DNA from: a virus
Strand: one strand, 5' to 3'
IMG/VR virus record: IMGVR_UViG_3300005537_000505
Location: 1 to 20,804 of that record
Length of the DNA: 20,804 nucleotides
The first letter of the stretch is position 1, and each line of letters begins with the position of its first letter. This document shows positions 10,902-17,994 of this stretch, piece after piece. The notes below the pieces were generated by a model. That model saw nothing but the letters and a program-made list of their open reading frames with translations, was not told the DNA's origin and made no database searches. Both the position numbers and the translations under genes were made by a program.

Positions 10902-11064
10902 GGCTGTTATCGCATCGGATGAACCTCGTTATCCGCTCTCTCTGGTTTTAGCCCAGTGCGGGTGATTACTGTACCCTCATGGCACCAGGATCGTCACTTG
11001 GAATGCTGCGGCTGACGAGGCTTACGTTCTGTGCGCATCCAGTTGCTGGGCCGGGAGCATCGTG

Positions 11065-11577
11065 ATGACACTCCCAGCTTGGACGGAAGTGGGTTTACTA
11101 CCTGCTGGCGCGCACCGGTCAGACATGCCTGGCATTTATGACCGCTTCGTGCTTGATGCCCCGCATCGGGATCACCGGGAACTGCTGTTCAGCGCGTTGA
11201 CAACACATCTCCGGCTAATGCAAAGGATCATTCCTGCTGGCGTAGCTTGGATAGATGGAAGCTTCGCCACGTGCAGAGAGGAACCACCGGAGGATGTGGA
11301 CGTGGTGGTCCTGCCGATGGACTGGGCTGCGGTCAGGTCGCTGCCTGATGTGGCGCGCATGAACCTTCATGCGCTCCTGACCCTCAAGGAGGTCTCCATC
11401 GCGCACCCGGAAGACCTCTGGTTCTCCAGGTTGCAGCCCATAGGCGGCCTGGTAGACGCCTACCTGTGCGCACCTGGCCAGGAGGCGACATGGCAGGAGA
11501 CGTGGTCGCGGGTAGTCGATGCTAAGGGTGTGGTCATCGATGGCCAGGTCAAAGGCTTTGCGGAGGTGACGTGGTGA
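11065..11577 (+). CDS. DUF6932-like nucleotidyltransferase-fold protein
   Basis: The 170-residue product carries a minimal nucleotidyltransferase signature at ~63-83: WIDGSFATCREEPPEDVDVV, with G-S followed 10 residues later by D-x-D, the two metal-binding aspartates of the pol-beta superfamily. The helix before it (RELLFSALTTHLRLMQRI) and the strand IGGLVDAYLC after it fit the DUF6932 arrangement. ATG 11065 is preferred over GTG 11062 because GGGAG at 11053-11057 is then 7 nt away. The stop overlaps the next gene (GTGA). Base and codon use are less GC-rich than in the flanking regulator genes, suggesting separate acquisition. The domain occurs in toxin-antitoxin and defence-like pairs, but enzymatic activity here is unproven. 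Confidence 0.7.
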   Translation: MTLPAWTEVGLLPAGAHRSDMPGIYDRFVLDAPHRDHRELLFSALTTHLRLMQRIIPAGVAWIDGSFATCREEPPEDVDVVVLPMDWAAVRSLPDVARMNLHALLTLKEVSIAHPEDLWFSRLQPIGGLVDAYLCAPGQEATWQETWSRVVDAKGVVIDGQVKGFAEVTW

Positions 11578-12487: not shown

Positions 12488-13891
12488 TGTCAGACCCTGC
12501 CGCTATTATCGGAGTGAGAAGAAAAGGAAATAGCAAGCGGCCCCCGCGACGCGCCAACGTCCGAGGGCCTGGACCAAGGAGCGCAACTCCATGGCCACTC
12601 CGACCATAGCACGCGACGCGTCGCACGTCGCCGCTCTGCTCGACAGCCCTGAGATCGCCGCGCTGATCGGTGAGCTTGAGGCGACCCGGTGGACCGGCCG
12701 TCCCGGCTACCCGCTCCGCTCCCTGCTCGGCCTGGTCCTGGTCAAGAGCGTGTACTGTATCCCGACGTGGACCCGGGCCGTGTCCCTGGTCCGTGACCAT
12801 GCCGCGCTGCGGGACGTGCTCGGCGCTGCCCCGTCCACGGACGCGTGCTACAGGTTCGCCCGCAAGCTCCGCAAGCACAGCGCAATGCTGGCGGAATGCA
12901 CCACGCGGATTCTCGGGGAACTGCATTCCCTGCACCCGGATATGGGCAGCACCGTTGCTATTGACGGCTCGGATCTTCCCGCTTACGCGAACGGGCAGAA
13001 ATACGTTTCCCGTGGCGGGAAACTTCGGGAGCGGTTCTCGGACCCGGATGCGTCATGGGGTCACCGCTCATCCATTTCCACCCGATCGGGCGGCGGGTAC
13101 TATGGCTATAAAATTCACGCGGCCGTTGACGTCGCGACCGGGCTGCCGCTGGCGTGGGAGGTCCGGACTGCGAAGGACTCAGAGATACCACTCGTGCCGG
13201 ACCTGCTGGACGCCGTGACCGCGCTCGGGTTCACGCCGGGTGTCGCCGTGCTCGATCGCGGGTACGACTCGCAGGCTGTCTATGAGGAGATCGAGTCGCG
13301 GGACATCCGCCCCGTCATCCCGCTGCGTGAAACCAAGGCCGTCAAGGACGGCCAGCACCTTCCCCCGTCCTGCGACCACGGCACATGGACATTCGCTGGG
13401 TCCGACACCAGGCGGGGAGCGTCGAAGTGGCGGTGCCCGACCGGCGAGTGTAAGCCGGCGTCGGTCTGGCTCAAGGCTGACCGGCTCCACACTCTCATCC
13501 CGCGCACCACCCCACGGTGGAAGGCGTACTACCACAAGCGGTGCGCCGTCGAGCGGGAGTTCGGCGTCCTCAAGCACCAGTGGGCACTGCTGCCGCTCCG
13601 CGTCCGGGGACTCGCGAAAGTCCGCCTCCACGTGAACCTGACCATCCTCGCCCAGCTCGCCGCCGCGCTCCTCAAAGCCCGGACCTAGAACCTGCCCGTC
13701 CCGCACCCCGCCGCGAGCGGGACCACCGGCATGCCCGGACACGGGAAACCCGCCTCACACGCAATTGCGCGGCCGCACGGCACCCGCTAACTGGACACAG
13801 AGGACAAAAGTCCAGGTCAGTCCGCCATCCCGCTCGATGTCAGGTCGCTCAGCACCGGGTTTCGCCGGTCCTATCGCCGATCCCTCCTAGC
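12488..13891 (+). mobile_element. IS4/IS5-superfamily insertion sequence, left copy
   Basis: The block matches a second, inverted copy at 15171-16582 from TGTCAGACCC upstream of the transposase, through conserved AAAGGAAATA and CCCCCGCGA segments, over the whole gene, to GGACAAAA (13802-13809) and finally CCCTCCTAGC. Similarity is strong to about 13809 and patchy beyond. A short inverted match between the TTTTTGTC end and the GACAAAA end suggests the true termini are near 12485 and 13820. No target-site duplication could be identified. Confidence 0.65.
12591..13688 (+). CDS. DDE transposase, left IS copy
   Basis: The 365-residue transposase has the DDE triad in the expected setting: VAIDGSDLPAY (Asp125), AVLDRGYDSQAVY (Asp222) and CAVEREFGVLKHQW (Glu321/323, with the R-E-F-x-x-LK context of the IS4/IS5 superfamily). 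The N-terminus (WTGRPGYPLRSLLGLVL) is the DUF772-like DNA-binding part. The GGGYYGYKIHAAVD motif precedes the second Asp. A central insert contains CDHGTW and CPTGEC, four cysteines that could bind zinc. It is full length and undamaged. The copy at 15373-16476 is clearly homologous but diverged along its whole length, so the two arrived separately or long ago. Confidence 0.9.
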   Translation: MATPTIARDASHVAALLDSPEIAALIGELEATRWTGRPGYPLRSLLGLVLVKSVYCIPTWTRAVSLVRDHAALRDVLGAAPSTDACYRFARKLRKHSAMLAECTTRILGELHSLHPDMGSTVAIDGSDLPAYANGQKYVSRGGKLRERFSDPDASWGHRSSISTRSGGGYYGYKIHAAVDVATGLPLAWEVRTAKDSEIPLVPDLLDAVTALGFTPGVAVLDRGYDSQAVYEEIESRDIRPVIPLRETKAVKDGQHLPPSCDHGTWTFAGSDTRRGASKWRCPTGECKPASVWLKADRLHTLIPRTTPRWKAYYHKRCAVEREFGVLKHQWALLPLRVRGLAKVRLHVNLTILAQLAAALLKART

Positions 13892-13937: not shown

Positions 13938-15086
13938 GTGAGCAGCCGGGTGGTGAAGCGGGCGTACAAGTACCGCTTCTACCCGACCCCGGAGCAGGCG
14001 GAGCTGCTGAACCGGACGTTCGGGTCGGTGCGGTACGTGTACAACCGGGCGCTCGCGGAACGGTCCCGGGCGTGGACACAGGACCAGAAGCGGGTCACGT
14101 TCGCGGAAACCTGCCGGATGCTCACCCAGTGGAAAGCGGACCCGGAGACATCCTGGCTGTACGAGGTATCCAACGTCGCGCTCCAGCAGGGGCTCCAGCA
14201 TCTCCAGCAGGCATACCTGAACTTCTGGGGCAAACGCTCCGGGTACCCGACGTTCAAATCGAAACGGAAGTCGCGGGCATCAGCGACGTTCACAACCTCG
14301 GGGTTCCGCTACCGGGACGGGCAGATCACGCTGGCGAAGATGGATGTCCCGCTGGATATCCGCTGGTCCCGCCCGCCGCCCGAATGCGCGGAGCCGTCCA
14401 CGGTGACGGTCAGCCGGGACGCGGCCGGACGGTGGCATGTCTCGATCCTGGTCGAGGAGACGATCGAGCCGCTTCCCCCGGCGCCAGCATCGGCGGTTGG
14501 GGTCGATGCCGGGATAACGTCGCTGGTGACCCTGTCGACCGGGGAGAAGATCACCAACCCGAAGTGCGAGAAACGGGACCGCGCCCGGCTGGCGAAGGCG
14601 CAGCGGAACCTGGCCCGCAAGCAGAAAGGCTCCCGCAACCGGGCCAGAGCGCGCGTCAAGGTCGCCCGCGTGTATGCCCGGATCACCGACCGCAGGACCG
14701 ATTTCCTGCACAAGTTGTCCACGAGGATCATCCGCGAGAACCAAACGGTGATCATCGAAGACCTGACCGTCCGCAACATGCTCAGGAACCATTCCCTGGC
14801 CCGCGCGATCTCCGATGCGTCCTGGTCGGAGTTCCGCAGGCAGCTGGAATACAAGGCGGACTGGTACGGCCGCACCGTCATCGCGGTCGACAGGTTCTAC
14901 CCGTCGAGCAGGACATGCTCTGCGTGCGGCCGCCTGGCCGCGTCGATGCCGCTGAACGTCCGGGAATGGGCGTGCCCCGCGTGCGGCACAGTCCACGACC
15001 GGGATATCAACGCCGCGAGGAACATACGAGCTGCCGGGCTGGCAGTGCTTGCCTGCGGAGATGGCGTAAGACCTGCCCGCACGTAG
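13938..15086 (+). CDS. tnpB: TnpB RNA-guided nuclease (IS200/IS605 / IS1341-type)
   Basis: The 382-residue product has every TnpB feature. The N-terminus AYKYRFYPTPEQAELLNRTF is typical. RuvC-I is SAVGVDAGITSL (Asp190), and RuvC-II is VIIEDLTVRNM (Glu274). A C4 zinc finger is formed by CSACG (327, 330) and CPACG (346, 349). RuvC-III is HDRDINAARNI (Asp354/356). No frameshift or stop interrupts it, so it is probably active. It works with the right-end RNA encoded by the end of its own gene to cut the donor site after transposon loss and restore the element. No TnpA transposase is in the window, so it would depend on one elsewhere. It sits between two inverted IS copies. The start is GTG 13938, apparently leaderless. 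Confidence 0.93.
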   Translation: MSSRVVKRAYKYRFYPTPEQAELLNRTFGSVRYVYNRALAERSRAWTQDQKRVTFAETCRMLTQWKADPETSWLYEVSNVALQQGLQHLQQAYLNFWGKRSGYPTFKSKRKSRASATFTTSGFRYRDGQITLAKMDVPLDIRWSRPPPECAEPSTVTVSRDAAGRWHVSILVEETIEPLPPAPASAVGVDAGITSLVTLSTGEKITNPKCEKRDRARLAKAQRNLARKQKGSRNRARARVKVARVYARITDRRTDFLHKLSTRIIRENQTVIIEDLTVRNMLRNHSLARAISDASWSEFRRQLEYKADWYGRTVIAVDRFYPSSRTCSACGRLAASMPLNVREWACPACGTVHDRDINAARNIRAAGLAVLACGDGVRPART

Positions 15087-15170: not shown

Positions 15171-16582
15171 GCTAGGAGGGAACCCCGAAACGAGCCGCGA
15201 AACTCAGCGCGGCGCGGGTTCCGGGTTCCGGAGTTAGCGTCCGGCCTGCGGTTTTGTCCTGTCTGTCCGGTAGTGCGTGTCCGCGCGGGACCGGGCGCGA
15301 TCTCATGGCCGCAATTCTCGTGTCCGGGCATGCCTGCGACCCCGCCAGCAGCGGGGTAATAGGCAGGGCTGCCTATGTCCGGGCGATGAGCAGCGCGGAT
15401 GCGAGCTGGGCGAAGATGGTCAGGTCCACGTGGAGCCGGACGCGGTAGATGCGCCGGACCCGCAGCGGCAGCGCGCCCCACTCGTTCTTGAGCCGGCCGA
15501 ATTCCCGCTCCACCGCGCCGCGCTGGTGATACAGGCTTTTCCATCGGGGCGTGCTGCGCGGGATCAGGGTGTGCAGCCGGTCCGCTTTCAGCCACGTGGA
15601 CGCGGGCGTGCACTCACCGGACGGGCAGCGCCACTTGGACGCTCCCCGCCTGGTGTCGGACCCGGCGAACGTCCACGTACCGTGCTCGCACGACGGCGGC
15701 AGGTGCTTGCCGGCCTTGACGGCGGGTGTCTGCCGCACTGGGATCACCGGCCGGATGTCCCGCTCTTCCAGCAGCGTGTACAGCGCCTGAGTGTCATAGC
15801 CACGGTCAAGGACCGCGATCGACGGGGCGAACCCGCGCCCGTTCGCGGCGTCGAGCAGCACCGGCACCGTGGGTATCTCGCTGTCTTTCGCGGTCTGCAC
15901 CTGCCACGCCACCGGCAGCCCGGTCACGATGTCCACGCACGCGTGAACCTTATAGCCGTAATACCCGCCGCCGCTGCGCGTGGAAATGGACGAGCGGTGA
16001 CCCCATGTCGCGTCCGGGTCGGAGAACTTCTCGCGCAGTTTCCCGCCGCGTGACACGTATTTCTGCCCGTTCGCGTAGGCGGGAAGGTCGGACCCGTCAA
16101 TAGCGACCGCGCTGCCCATTTCCGGGTTGAGGGAATGCAGTTCCGCCAGCACCTTCTCAATGCACGACGTGAGCATGTCCCCATGGGTCCGCAGCTTGAC
16201 CGTGAACCTGTAGCACGCGTCCGTGGACGGGGCCGCACCCAGCACGTCCCGCAGCCCGGCGTGGTCAGCGACCAGCGCGACCGTCCGCGTCCACGTGGGC
16301 AGGCAGTACACGGACTTGACCAGCGTGATGCCGACCATGGCACGCACCGGGTAGCCGGGCCGGCCCGTCCACCGGGTCGCCTCAAGCTGGGCGATGAGCC
16401 CGGTGATCTCCGGGCTGTCCAGCAGCGCGGCAACCTGTGCGGCATCGCGCGGGAGTGATACGGTCGAAGCGGCCATGGAGTTGCATCTCCTGGTCCAGGC
16501 CCCCGGAGTGTTACCAGCACTCGCGGGGGTCGCCCTTTATTTCCTTTTCCCTTCTCTTCGACTATATCGCTTGGGTCTGACA
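15171..16582 (-). mobile_element. IS4/IS5-superfamily insertion sequence, right copy (inverted)
   Basis: This is the inverted homologue of 12488-13891. Read on the minus strand it starts at TGTCAGACCC (16582-16573), keeps the AAAGGAAATA and CCCCCGCGA segments, the transposase, GCATGCCCGGACACG (15333-15319), GGACAAAA (15259-15252), and ends at CCCTCCTAGC (15180-15171). Total length agrees with the left copy to within ~10 bp. The stretch beyond GGACAAAA is only weakly alike, so the real right terminus may be near 15250. Confidence 0.65.
15373..16476 (-). CDS. DDE transposase, right IS copy
   Basis: The 367-residue protein is a diverged homologue of the left copy, with the same DDE layout: VAIDGSDLPAY, IAVLDRGYDTQALY and GAVEREFGRLKNEW. 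The four-cysteine insert (CEHGTW ... CPSGEC) and the GGGYYGYKVHACVD motif are also kept. Differences are spread evenly (for example LRTHGDMLTSCIEK against LRKHSAMLAECTTR), so this is an independent lineage rather than a recent duplicate. The gene is intact. With the left copy it frames tnpB in an inverted, composite-transposon-like layout; either transposase might act on both sets of ends if the termini are similar enough. Confidence 0.9.
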   Translation of the reverse strand: MAASTVSLPRDAAQVAALLDSPEITGLIAQLEATRWTGRPGYPVRAMVGITLVKSVYCLPTWTRTVALVADHAGLRDVLGAAPSTDACYRFTVKLRTHGDMLTSCIEKVLAELHSLNPEMGSAVAIDGSDLPAYANGQKYVSRGGKLREKFSDPDATWGHRSSISTRSGGGYYGYKVHACVDIVTGLPVAWQVQTAKDSEIPTVPVLLDAANGRGFAPSIAVLDRGYDTQALYTLLEERDIRPVIPVRQTPAVKAGKHLPPSCEHGTWTFAGSDTRRGASKWRCPSGECTPASTWLKADRLHTLIPRSTPRWKSLYHQRGAVEREFGRLKNEWGALPLRVRRIYRVRLHVDLTIFAQLASALLIART

Positions 16583-16763: not shown

Positions 16764-16837
16764 TGCCCCAGGCAGGGTTCCAACCTGCGACTGTCGGCTT
16801 AGCAGGCCGGCGCTCTATGCGACTGAGCTACTGGGGC
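16764..16837 (-). tRNA. tRNA with anticodon GCU (serine codons) on an arginine-like type I body
   Basis: The minus strand folds into a full cloverleaf of 74 nt. The acceptor is GCCCCAG/CTGGGGC (7 perfect pairs) and the D stem is GCTC/GAGC with loop AGTCGCATA. The anticodon stem is CCGGC/GCCGA (one C27-A43 mismatch) with loop CTGCTAA, giving U33 and anticodon GCU. A 5-nt variable region CAGTC follows, then T stem GCAGG/CCTGC with loop TTGGAAC and discriminator A. CCA is not encoded. Anticodon GCU means serine AGC/AGU, yet the long variable arm required of bacterial tRNA-Ser is absent. The body matches tRNA-Arg(UCU/CCU), including A20, C35 and U36. Position 19 is C rather than G and position 56 is G rather than C, a reciprocal swap that preserves the D-loop/T-loop pair. 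It may be a functional oddity or a decaying gene. Confidence 0.8.
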
Positions 16838-16880
16838 TGGAGGCTGCGGAGCCACTGGTATGGCCCCGCAGCCAGAGTTA

Positions 16881-16925
16881 GCCCCGGGAGGGCTGGGTGT
16901 CTGAGCCCGTCGGTCCTCCCGGGGC
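16881..16925. other. Strong 11-bp hairpin between tRNA and DUF5343-like gene
   Basis: GCCCCGGGAGG (16881-16891) and CCTCCCGGGGC (16915-16925) are perfect inverted arms around a 23-nt loop. On the minus strand it lies upstream of the tRNA; on the plus strand it is ~220 nt before the gene at 17143. It may end transcription arriving from either side or shape a leader RNA. Confidence 0.4.
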
Positions 16926-17142
16926 GGCTTCTCTCATAGGCATTCGCTCCCAACTCAGGAAGTAAGCCGCGCTCCCACCGGAGCTTAGCGCACTGAAGGC
17001 GTGCGTGGGGCGCGGTGATGGGCTTGCCGCCTCGCGTGTCCCTCCGGGCGGATCGGTGTAGGCGCGCATGTCCCTCGGCGAGTTGCTGAATCGGTCCGGT
17101 GTTCCCGCTAAGATGCTCTTGGCGACACTTGGAGGAACGGCC

Positions 17143-17994
17143 ATGCCGAGCGCAAGGGGACACGTGAAGGACGGGAAGAGCCCGACGGCCTTTCCGATCA
17201 TCCCGCTCAAGGACGTAGTGGAAATGGCGTGCCTGATTGGCCGACGGGGCGGCAGGTGCCGATTTGATGAGCTTGCCAGCTCACTGGACCAGGTCAGGAC
17301 CAGCGGCGCGTTCCGGGGGCGGACGGCCGCCGGCCGTATGTTCGGTGCAACAGAGACTGTCGGCAGTGAGCTGGTCCTTACCGACATCGGACGGCGCATG
17401 GCCGCGTCGCCCTCGGACGTGGACATGCTGGCGGAAGCCTTCCTGAGCGTGGAGCTATACGGGAAACTGTTCGACCGGTACGCCGCCGACGGCGGGAAGC
17501 TGCCTGCTGTAGACGTCATCGACGTGGACATCGAGCGTCTCGGAGTACCCGAGCACCGGGCGACCAGGGCGCGTCAGGTCTTCATCCGGAGCGCAGAGAC
17601 CGCCGGATTCTTCCGCTCGGGTCGCGACCGGCTCATCCGCCCCAACGGAGGTAGCATCGCAGTCGGGCGTAGTGCCGTGCCCGAGCGCAAGGAGCCTGCG
17701 GAAGTGTTTCATCCAGAAGCAGAAGTGGTGCTTGCGATGCCAACGCCGGCACCGCCGTCGCACTCACTACCGCCGTCGCACTCACTACCGCCGTTGATGC
17801 AGGCGCTGGTGGACAGACTGCCGGCTGAGGGCGAGCGGTACACACCTCAGCAGCGCGAGCACTGGCTTGAGACAGCGAAGAACGTCCTCGACCTTGTCTA
17901 CGTGGATGATGCACCCGCGCCGCCGTCTGCCAGCCCGAACGGGCACACAGGCTCGTACCCGGAACCGGTGATTCAACCCGAAACGCGGGCATGA
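17143..17994 (+). CDS. DUF5343-like protein with low-complexity tail
   Basis: The 283-residue product starts at ATG 17143, with GGAGGA 7 nt upstream. Residues ~15-165 resemble DUF5343: a helical N-terminal part (IIPLKDVVEMACLIGRRGG), a central ELVLTDIGRRMAASPSD segment with the family's 'LT..G' turn, then LSVELYGKLFDRY and RARQVFIRSAETAGFFR near the end of the domain. The tail is Pro/Ser-rich and contains a tandem PPSHSL repeat at ~204-217, then a helix (REHWLETAKNVLDLVYV). DUF5343 has a winged-helix-like look and appears in islands and defence-type regions, but its role is not known. It is convergent with the DUF397 gene and overlaps its 3' end by 22 bp. A lone gene next to the odd tRNA. Confidence 0.65.
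   Translation: MPSARGHVKDGKSPTAFPIIPLKDVVEMACLIGRRGGRCRFDELASSLDQVRTSGAFRGRTAAGRMFGATETVGSELVLTDIGRRMAASPSDVDMLAEAFLSVELYGKLFDRYAADGGKLPAVDVIDVDIERLGVPEHRATRARQVFIRSAETAGFFRSGRDRLIRPNGGSIAVGRSAVPERKEPAEVFHPEAEVVLAMPTPAPPSHSLPPSHSLPPLMQALVDRLPAEGERYTPQQREHWLETAKNVLDLVYVDDAPAPPSASPNGHTGSYPEPVIQPETRA
17752..17787 (+). repeat. Two tandem 18-bp units inside a coding region
   Basis: CCGCCGTCGCACTCACTA is repeated exactly twice (17752-17769, 17770-17787), followed by CCGCCG, encoding PPSHSL twice. Perfect identity suggests recent replication slippage within the linker of the DUF5343-like protein. Confidence 0.9.

What the first reader, a model, noticed from the sequence alone, without database searches (positions are those of the whole stretch)
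16764..16837. Arginine-like type I tRNA with a serine (GCU) anticodon and a swapped 19-56 elbow pair
Seen: a complete cloverleaf on the minus strand with anticodon GCU, a 5-nt variable region, a D-loop with C19 and a T-loop with G56. Known: bacterial tRNA-Ser is type II with a long variable arm needed by SerRS; ArgRS reads A20, C35 and U/G36, all present here; G19-C56 is nearly invariant. Changing both bases together keeps Watson-Crick pairing, which is hard to explain by decay and suggests selection for a working, perhaps insulated, tRNA. If charged with arginine it would insert Arg at AGC/AGU. It could be a deliberate mistranslation factor, an escape tRNA of a mobile element, or a non-ribosomal tRNA (for example an aminoacyl donor).
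Basis: partly seen in the sequence, partly recalled or inferred. Interest (0 to 1): 0.82.

Follow-up and report, generated by a model that had tools for sequence, protein, structure and literature searches.

The report
Prophage arginine tRNA with serine anticodon
A bacterial prophage carries a well-formed arginine-type tRNA whose anticodon reads serine codons, one of a rare, scattered set of such mismatched tRNAs that often have a rewired elbow and tend to sit on mobile DNA; if it is made and charged it would put arginine where serine is coded, but whether the cell uses it is not shown.

Summary
In detail: 16764-16837 (-) is a complete type I cloverleaf with anticodon GCU, a 5-nt variable loop, C19 and G56. 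Its body is a tRNA-Arg: all 30 best matches in 397 actinomycete genomes are tRNA-Arg, the best being UCU at 85%, one wobble base from GCU. It has A20, C35, U36 and A73. The window lies wholly inside a 135 kb prophage-like contig.

The elbow swap is compensatory, but not tied to GCU. C19-G56 also occurs in 16 other viral-contig tRNAs of several isotypes, including an Arg(UCU) with the same D-loop. Still, type I GCU tRNAs (62 loci in 84,980 species genomes) deviate at the elbow in 11 of 43 well-formed cases; G19 is lost in 4 of 14 (one D-loop class) against 0 of 99 Arg(UCU) controls.

Five such tRNAs sit just upstream of an IS1-type transposase. The unknown protein divergent from the window tRNA (17068-17994) has relatives divergent from odd tRNAs in two other loci.

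Signs of decay exist: C27-A43 is mismatched, and G34 favours a misfold that hides the anticodon.

Best reading: a mobile-element chimeric tRNA, probably Arg-charged if expressed. Use in deliberate mistranslation is unproven.

The parts
16764..16837 (-). type I tRNA, Arg body, GCU anticodon, 5-nt variable loop, A73, no encoded CCA
   Evidence: Arg body
16801..16803 (-). anticodon GCU (U34 to G34 relative to tRNA-Arg UCU)
16819..16819 (-). C19 (normally G19)
16818..16818 (-). A20, main bacterial arginine identity base
   Evidence: identity set from PMC9976931
16781..16781 (-). G56 (normally C56), pairs with C19
16794..16810 (-). anticodon stem with C27-A43 mismatch at its outer pair (4-bp stem)
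16842..16873 (-). strong hairpin directly upstream of the tRNA
   Evidence: upstream 93 nt, z -5.9
16881..16925 (-). second strong hairpin upstream (11-bp outer arms)
17068..17994 (+). 308-aa protein of unknown family (called A2 here), divergent from the tRNA; relatives are divergent from odd tRNAs in L125 and L523
15315..16582 (-). insertion sequence with DDE transposase (15373-16476), 77% identical to the copy at 12521-13747; its homologous block ends 181 bp short of the tRNA, so the tRNA is outside it

Best explanation
It is a tRNA-Arg carried by a prophage of an actinomycete. A tRNA-Arg(UCU)-like gene whose elbow pair had been exchanged (G19-C56 to C19-G56) changed its wobble base from U34 to G34. 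SerRS should ignore it because it has no long variable arm; ArgRS should still charge it through A20, C35, U36 and A73. If transcribed and matured it would therefore be an Arg-tRNA that reads AGC and AGU and places some arginine at serine codons, in competition with the host's tRNA-Ser(GCU). Shown: structure, Arg body, prophage setting, compensated elbow, recurrence of such chimeric tRNAs on mobile DNA. Inferred: Arg charging, use by the ribosome, any benefit. I put the origin at about 0.85 and real function as an Arg-inserting tRNA at about 0.45.
For: Cloverleaf and score. All 30 best matches in 397 actinomycete genomes are tRNA-Arg, best UCU at 85%. Against L261 (Arg UCU) two pairs change on both sides (C6-G67 to A6-U67, G19-C56 to C19-G56), the mark of past selection on structure. 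Arg determinants present (PMC9976931). Prophage setting: tape measure, tail-like protein, integrase with a tRNA-Pro 3' end as att site. The phage genes use AGR for 18% of Arg codons, so a tRNA-Arg(UCU/CCU) ancestor is reasonable. Other Arg-body tRNAs with AGY-reading anticodons lie on mobile cassettes: five GCU loci next to an IS1-type transposase, plus an ACU one found without selecting for anticodon. Chimeric tRNAs that mistranslate are known in actinomycetes (PMC11415595).
Against: No promoter or terminator signal for it was recognised. G34 makes a fold in which the anticodon pairs with the T stem 1.2 kcal/mol better than the cloverleaf; with U34 the cloverleaf is best (secondary structure only). 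C27-A43 is mismatched. AGY codons are common in the phage's own genes (29% of Ser codons, 18.7 per 1000), so strong expression would damage its own proteins. No aminoacyl-tRNA synthetase was recognised among the window proteins scanned.
Confidence: 0.5

Rival explanations
1. A decaying relic: a phage tRNA-Arg(UCU) with a previously fixed elbow swap that lost its use, gained G34 and A43, and is not expressed or not matured.
For: C27-A43 mismatch, anticodon-hiding fold caused by G34, no clear promoter, no relative of the exact tRNA outside this sample, surrounding IS insertions.
Against: Acceptor, D and T stems are intact, all usual tertiary bases are present, and two pairs changed on both sides. 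Chimeric GCU tRNAs recur on mobile cassettes with conserved gene order, which decay alone does not predict.
Confidence: 0.35
2. An escape tRNA: the phage carries a tRNA altered so that host tRNA-cutting defences miss it, with the anticodon change a by-product.
For: Phage-borne; altered anticodon loop and elbow relative to host-like tRNA-Arg. Phage tRNAs escape anticodon nucleases by anticodon-loop changes (PMC10264068). Other elbow-swapped viral tRNAs have ordinary anticodons.
Against: Changing the wobble base means it no longer replaces the cut tRNA's decoding. No nuclease target was identified.
Confidence: 0.1
3. Part of a two-part mobile module in which protein A2 (17068-17994) and an odd tRNA act together, for example as a toxin and its regulator or as a stress switch. 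This could hold together with the best explanation.
For: A2 relatives sit divergently about 200 bp from odd tRNAs in three settings (window, L125, L523). A2 is rare: 10 of 297 actinomycete genomes, none in 72,556 plasmids or 50,697 phages.
Against: Most A2 relatives in actinomycetes have no tRNA beside them. Only three cases. The A2 model is poor (pLDDT 45) and no family matched.
Confidence: 0.2
4. A non-ribosomal aminoacyl donor for a peptide or cell-wall enzyme.
For: Altered elbow is one way to keep a tRNA off the ribosome (inference; no tool result speaks for it).
Against: No aminoacyl-tRNA-using enzyme was recognised in the proteins scanned. Elbow bases G18, U54, U55, A58 and the 19-56 pairing are kept.
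Confidence: 0.04

Closest known systems
tRNA-ProX mistranslating tRNAs of Streptomyces and Kitasatospora (PMC11415595)
   Same: Actinomycete tRNAs whose body (Pro) and anticodon (Ala, Asn, Thr) disagree and that mistranslate in E. coli tests.
   Different: Pro body, A33, A15-A48, G21, A34 and a partner ProRSx gene; here an Arg body, U33, G15-C48, A21, G34 and no partner synthetase recognised.
Allo-tRNAs (PMC7609411)
   Different: Allo-tRNAs have a 12-bp acceptor branch and mostly Ser identity; this one has a normal 7/5 branch and Arg identity.
Phage tRNAs that evade anticodon nucleases (PMC10264068)
   Same: Phage-borne tRNA with changed anticodon-loop sequence.
   Different: Those keep their decoding; here the codons read change from Arg to Ser.
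4-bp anticodon-stem tRNAs (PMC13092985)
   Same: Outer anticodon-stem pair is open (C27-A43).
   Different: That feature is common (5.6% of bacterial tRNAs in that paper) and is studied there mainly for C34 tRNAs, not G34.

Membership tests
bacterial tRNA-Ser | long variable arm (type II) | tested here: not met
   5-nt variable region
bacterial tRNA-Ser | Ser anticodon | tested here: met
   GCU
bacterial tRNA-Arg | A20, C35, U/G36, A/G73 | tested here: met
bacterial tRNA-Arg | nearest relatives are tRNA-Arg | tested here: met
   30 of 30 best matches
bacterial tRNA-Arg | anticodon reads Arg codons | tested here: not met
   GCU reads AGC/AGU
bacterial tRNA-Arg | charged with arginine | not testable with these tools
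   needs charging assay
tRNA-ProX | Pro body with A33, A15-A48, G21, A34 | tested here: not met
   features
tRNA-ProX | co-encoded ProRSx | tested here: not met
   no synthetase among the window proteins scanned
allo-tRNA | 12-bp acceptor branch (8/4 or 9/3) | tested here: not met
   7/5 branch
phage nuclease-escape tRNA | phage-borne with altered anticodon loop | tested here: met
phage nuclease-escape tRNA | resists a host tRNA nuclease and restores decoding | not testable with these tools
   no host and no nuclease identified

The most novel reading that the evidence does not exclude
Mobile elements in unrelated bacteria spread a two-part module: a chimeric or otherwise odd tRNA, often with a rewired elbow, and a divergent partner protein (A2 type) or an IS1-type cassette. 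The tRNA deliberately misreads codons (Arg at AGY) or acts as a toxin-like RNA that the partner controls.
Probability: 0.2. Interest if true: 0.85.

Novelty: new variant of a known kind. Interest (0 to 1): 0.55.

Why it matters
Natural tRNAs with body and anticodon in conflict are among the few known ways in which a cell may mistranslate on purpose. An Arg-for-Ser version carried by a prophage, with similar tRNAs on IS1-type cassettes in Proteobacteria, would mean that mobile DNA spreads mistranslation factors. The elbow data also show that the nearly invariant 19-56 pair can be exchanged when both sides change, which makes its role testable.

Tried and rejected
The tRNA as part of the neighbouring IS: rejected, because the homologous block of the two IS copies ends at 16582, 181 bp before the tRNA. 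The C19-G56 swap as a GCU-specific mark: rejected. The first GCU pattern in viral contigs mostly returned tRNA-like RNAs or chance matches without a cloverleaf, several of which match YrlA (Y RNA-like) below its cut-off, so a cloverleaf pattern was used instead. The 27-43 mismatch as a special feature: 7 of 52 well-formed GCU tRNAs, against a published background of 5.6% for 4-bp stems, so not distinctive. Structure of protein A2: model too poor for a fold search. No near-identical plasmid DNA. The host genome is not held, so its own tRNA-Ser(GCU) could not be checked.

Full report
Observation. ARAGORN and Rfam both find a tRNA at 16764-16837 on the minus strand (61.8 bits against a cut-off of 29). 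The sequence has a perfect acceptor stem, a D-loop AGTCGCATA with G18, C19 and A20, anticodon loop CTGCTAA, a 5-nt variable region, a perfect T stem, a T-loop TTGGAAC with G56, and A73. The only broken pair is C27-A43.

Where it lies. The window is a virus record and is contained, 100% identical, in a 135 kb IMG/VR contig, G001. It is the only tRNA found there above the Rfam cut-off. In the first 60 kb, G001 has a tape-measure match and a large tail-like protein at its left end, phage-type glycosyltransferases and methyltransferases, and an integrase followed by the 3' half of a tRNA-Pro as a likely att site (the att reading is mine from the sequence). The tRNA sits in an accessory, IS-rich part of this prophage, about 8 kb from the integrase. 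The host genome is not held; that the host is an actinomycete is inferred from gene content (DUF397, DUF5753 regulators) and the best tRNA matches.

What the body is. In 397 actinomycete genomes the 30 best matches to the tRNA are all tRNA-Arg, the best tRNA-Arg(UCU) at 85%. UCU to GCU is one base. Against a close Arg(UCU) tRNA, pairs 6-67 and 19-56 changed on both sides, while 27-43 was broken. The bacterial arginine set A20, C35, U/G36, A/G73 (PMC9976931) is present. The serine feature, a long variable arm, is absent.

Is the elbow swap special? I searched viral contigs for the same D and T arm with C19-G56, with C19-C56, with G19-G56 and with the normal pair: 17, 26 (19 after removing shifted GG), 0 and more than 120. 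So positions 19 and 56 covary strongly, though the sequences are not independent. The 16 other C19-G56 tRNAs carry Cys, Arg, Thr, Gly and Ala anticodons; L297 is an Arg(UCU) with the same D-loop AGTCGCATA. The swap therefore does not need the GCU anticodon.

Is GCU on a type I body rare, and does it go with elbow changes? A pattern without any elbow constraint found 62 loci in 84,980 species genomes and 13 in viral contigs. Of 43 well-formed genome cases, 11 deviate at the elbow; five have an exchanged Watson-Crick 19-56 pair (U-A in L103 and L130, A-U in L125, L148 and L159), others lose G18/G19 or change 55 or 56. In the matching D-loop class, 4 of 14 lack G19, against 0 of 99 Arg(UCU) tRNAs in 249 pseudomonadotal genomes (Fisher p about 2e-4; the two hits of the control pattern are shifted GG). 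So elbow rewiring is enriched in this odd class, in line with fast-evolving or mobile tRNAs. The GCU set spans many phyla and the control only one, which is a weakness of this comparison.

Mobile cassettes. L125, L130, L133, L155 and L167 have the tRNA roughly 100-250 bp upstream of an IS1-type transposase. Searching with the transposase alone, without an anticodon filter, gave further tRNAs at the same place: L170 (Arg-like body, ACU) and L199 (Leu-like body, UUA), and L125 has a UUA one too. Most elements of this type have no tRNA; they share a small left-hand ORF and variable cargo. In L130, L133, L155 and L167 the order small ORF, 190-207 aa ORF, tRNA, transposase is conserved at 45-61% transposase identity where the transposase is intact. 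These are side findings, but they show that Arg-like bodies with AGY-reading anticodons are kept on mobile cassettes.

The partner protein. The gene divergent from the window tRNA (17068-17994, called A2) matches no Pfam, NCBIfam or PADLOC family. A relative (33% over 268 aa) is divergent from the GCU tRNA in L125. A further search in the order of L125 gave one more A2 gene (L523), again divergent, about 210 bp from two odd tRNAs, one with an 8-nt anticodon loop and one that I read as a Cys-like body (U73) with UGC. These three share a C-terminal LPxEG motif absent from the actinomycete relatives, which have no tRNA beside them. A2 is rare. With three cases this is suggestive only.

Signs of decay. 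With G34 the best secondary structure pairs the anticodon with the T stem, 1.2 kcal/mol better than the cloverleaf; with U34 the cloverleaf is best. The calculation ignores tertiary contacts and modified bases. No promoter is recognised upstream of the tRNA, although actinomycete promoters are poorly covered by that scan. Two strong hairpins lie upstream. The phage genes do not avoid AGY, so high expression would be costly.

Conclusion. Most likely this is a prophage tRNA-Arg that has become a chimeric, Arg-body, Ser-anticodon tRNA, structurally sound enough to be charged with arginine. Deliberate mistranslation is possible and has precedent in actinomycetes (PMC11415595), but a relic is nearly as likely. 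It is not a member of the tRNA-ProX or allo-tRNA families.

Noticed in passing
L125, L130, L133, L155, L167, L170, L199: IS1-type transposase cassettes carry tRNAs with mismatched anticodons just upstream of the transposase: Arg-like body with GCU or ACU, Leu-like body with UUA.
   Followed up: partly
L133:3163-3238 and L167:9594-9670: GCU tRNA-like genes with a D-loop lacking GG and a T-loop AGAATAA, next to intact or truncated IS1-type transposases.
   Followed up: partly
L523:2506-2683 (also L524:9047-9224): Two odd tRNAs (8-nt anticodon loop; probable Cys body with UGC) divergent from an A2-family gene, beside genes that look like a type I restriction system.
   Followed up: partly
L005, L025, L028, L035: Phage contigs with tRNA-like RNAs holding CTGCTAA plus a T arm but no cloverleaf; these loci match YrlA (Y RNA-like) below its gathering score.
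   Followed up: partly
L097:9575-10321 and L097:14490-15300: In G001, right of the window: a cas1 fragment, and an array of repeats (GTCTCAGCAGGTACGCAGCTGAGCATGCGTTGCGAC type) next to the likely att site, resembling a CRISPR array.
   Followed up: no
L106 and L141: Repeated type I GCU tRNA genes (two copies about 860 bp apart in L141) with a 4-nt variable loop in an Elusimicrobia MAG and another MAG.
   Followed up: no
window 11062-11577: DUF6932 protein that also matches the PADLOC candidate defence family PDC-M63A.
   Followed up: no
window 12521-13747, 13938-15086, 15315-16582: Two 77% identical DDE-transposase IS copies in opposite orientation flank a TnpB (IS605 OrfB) gene.
   Followed up: no
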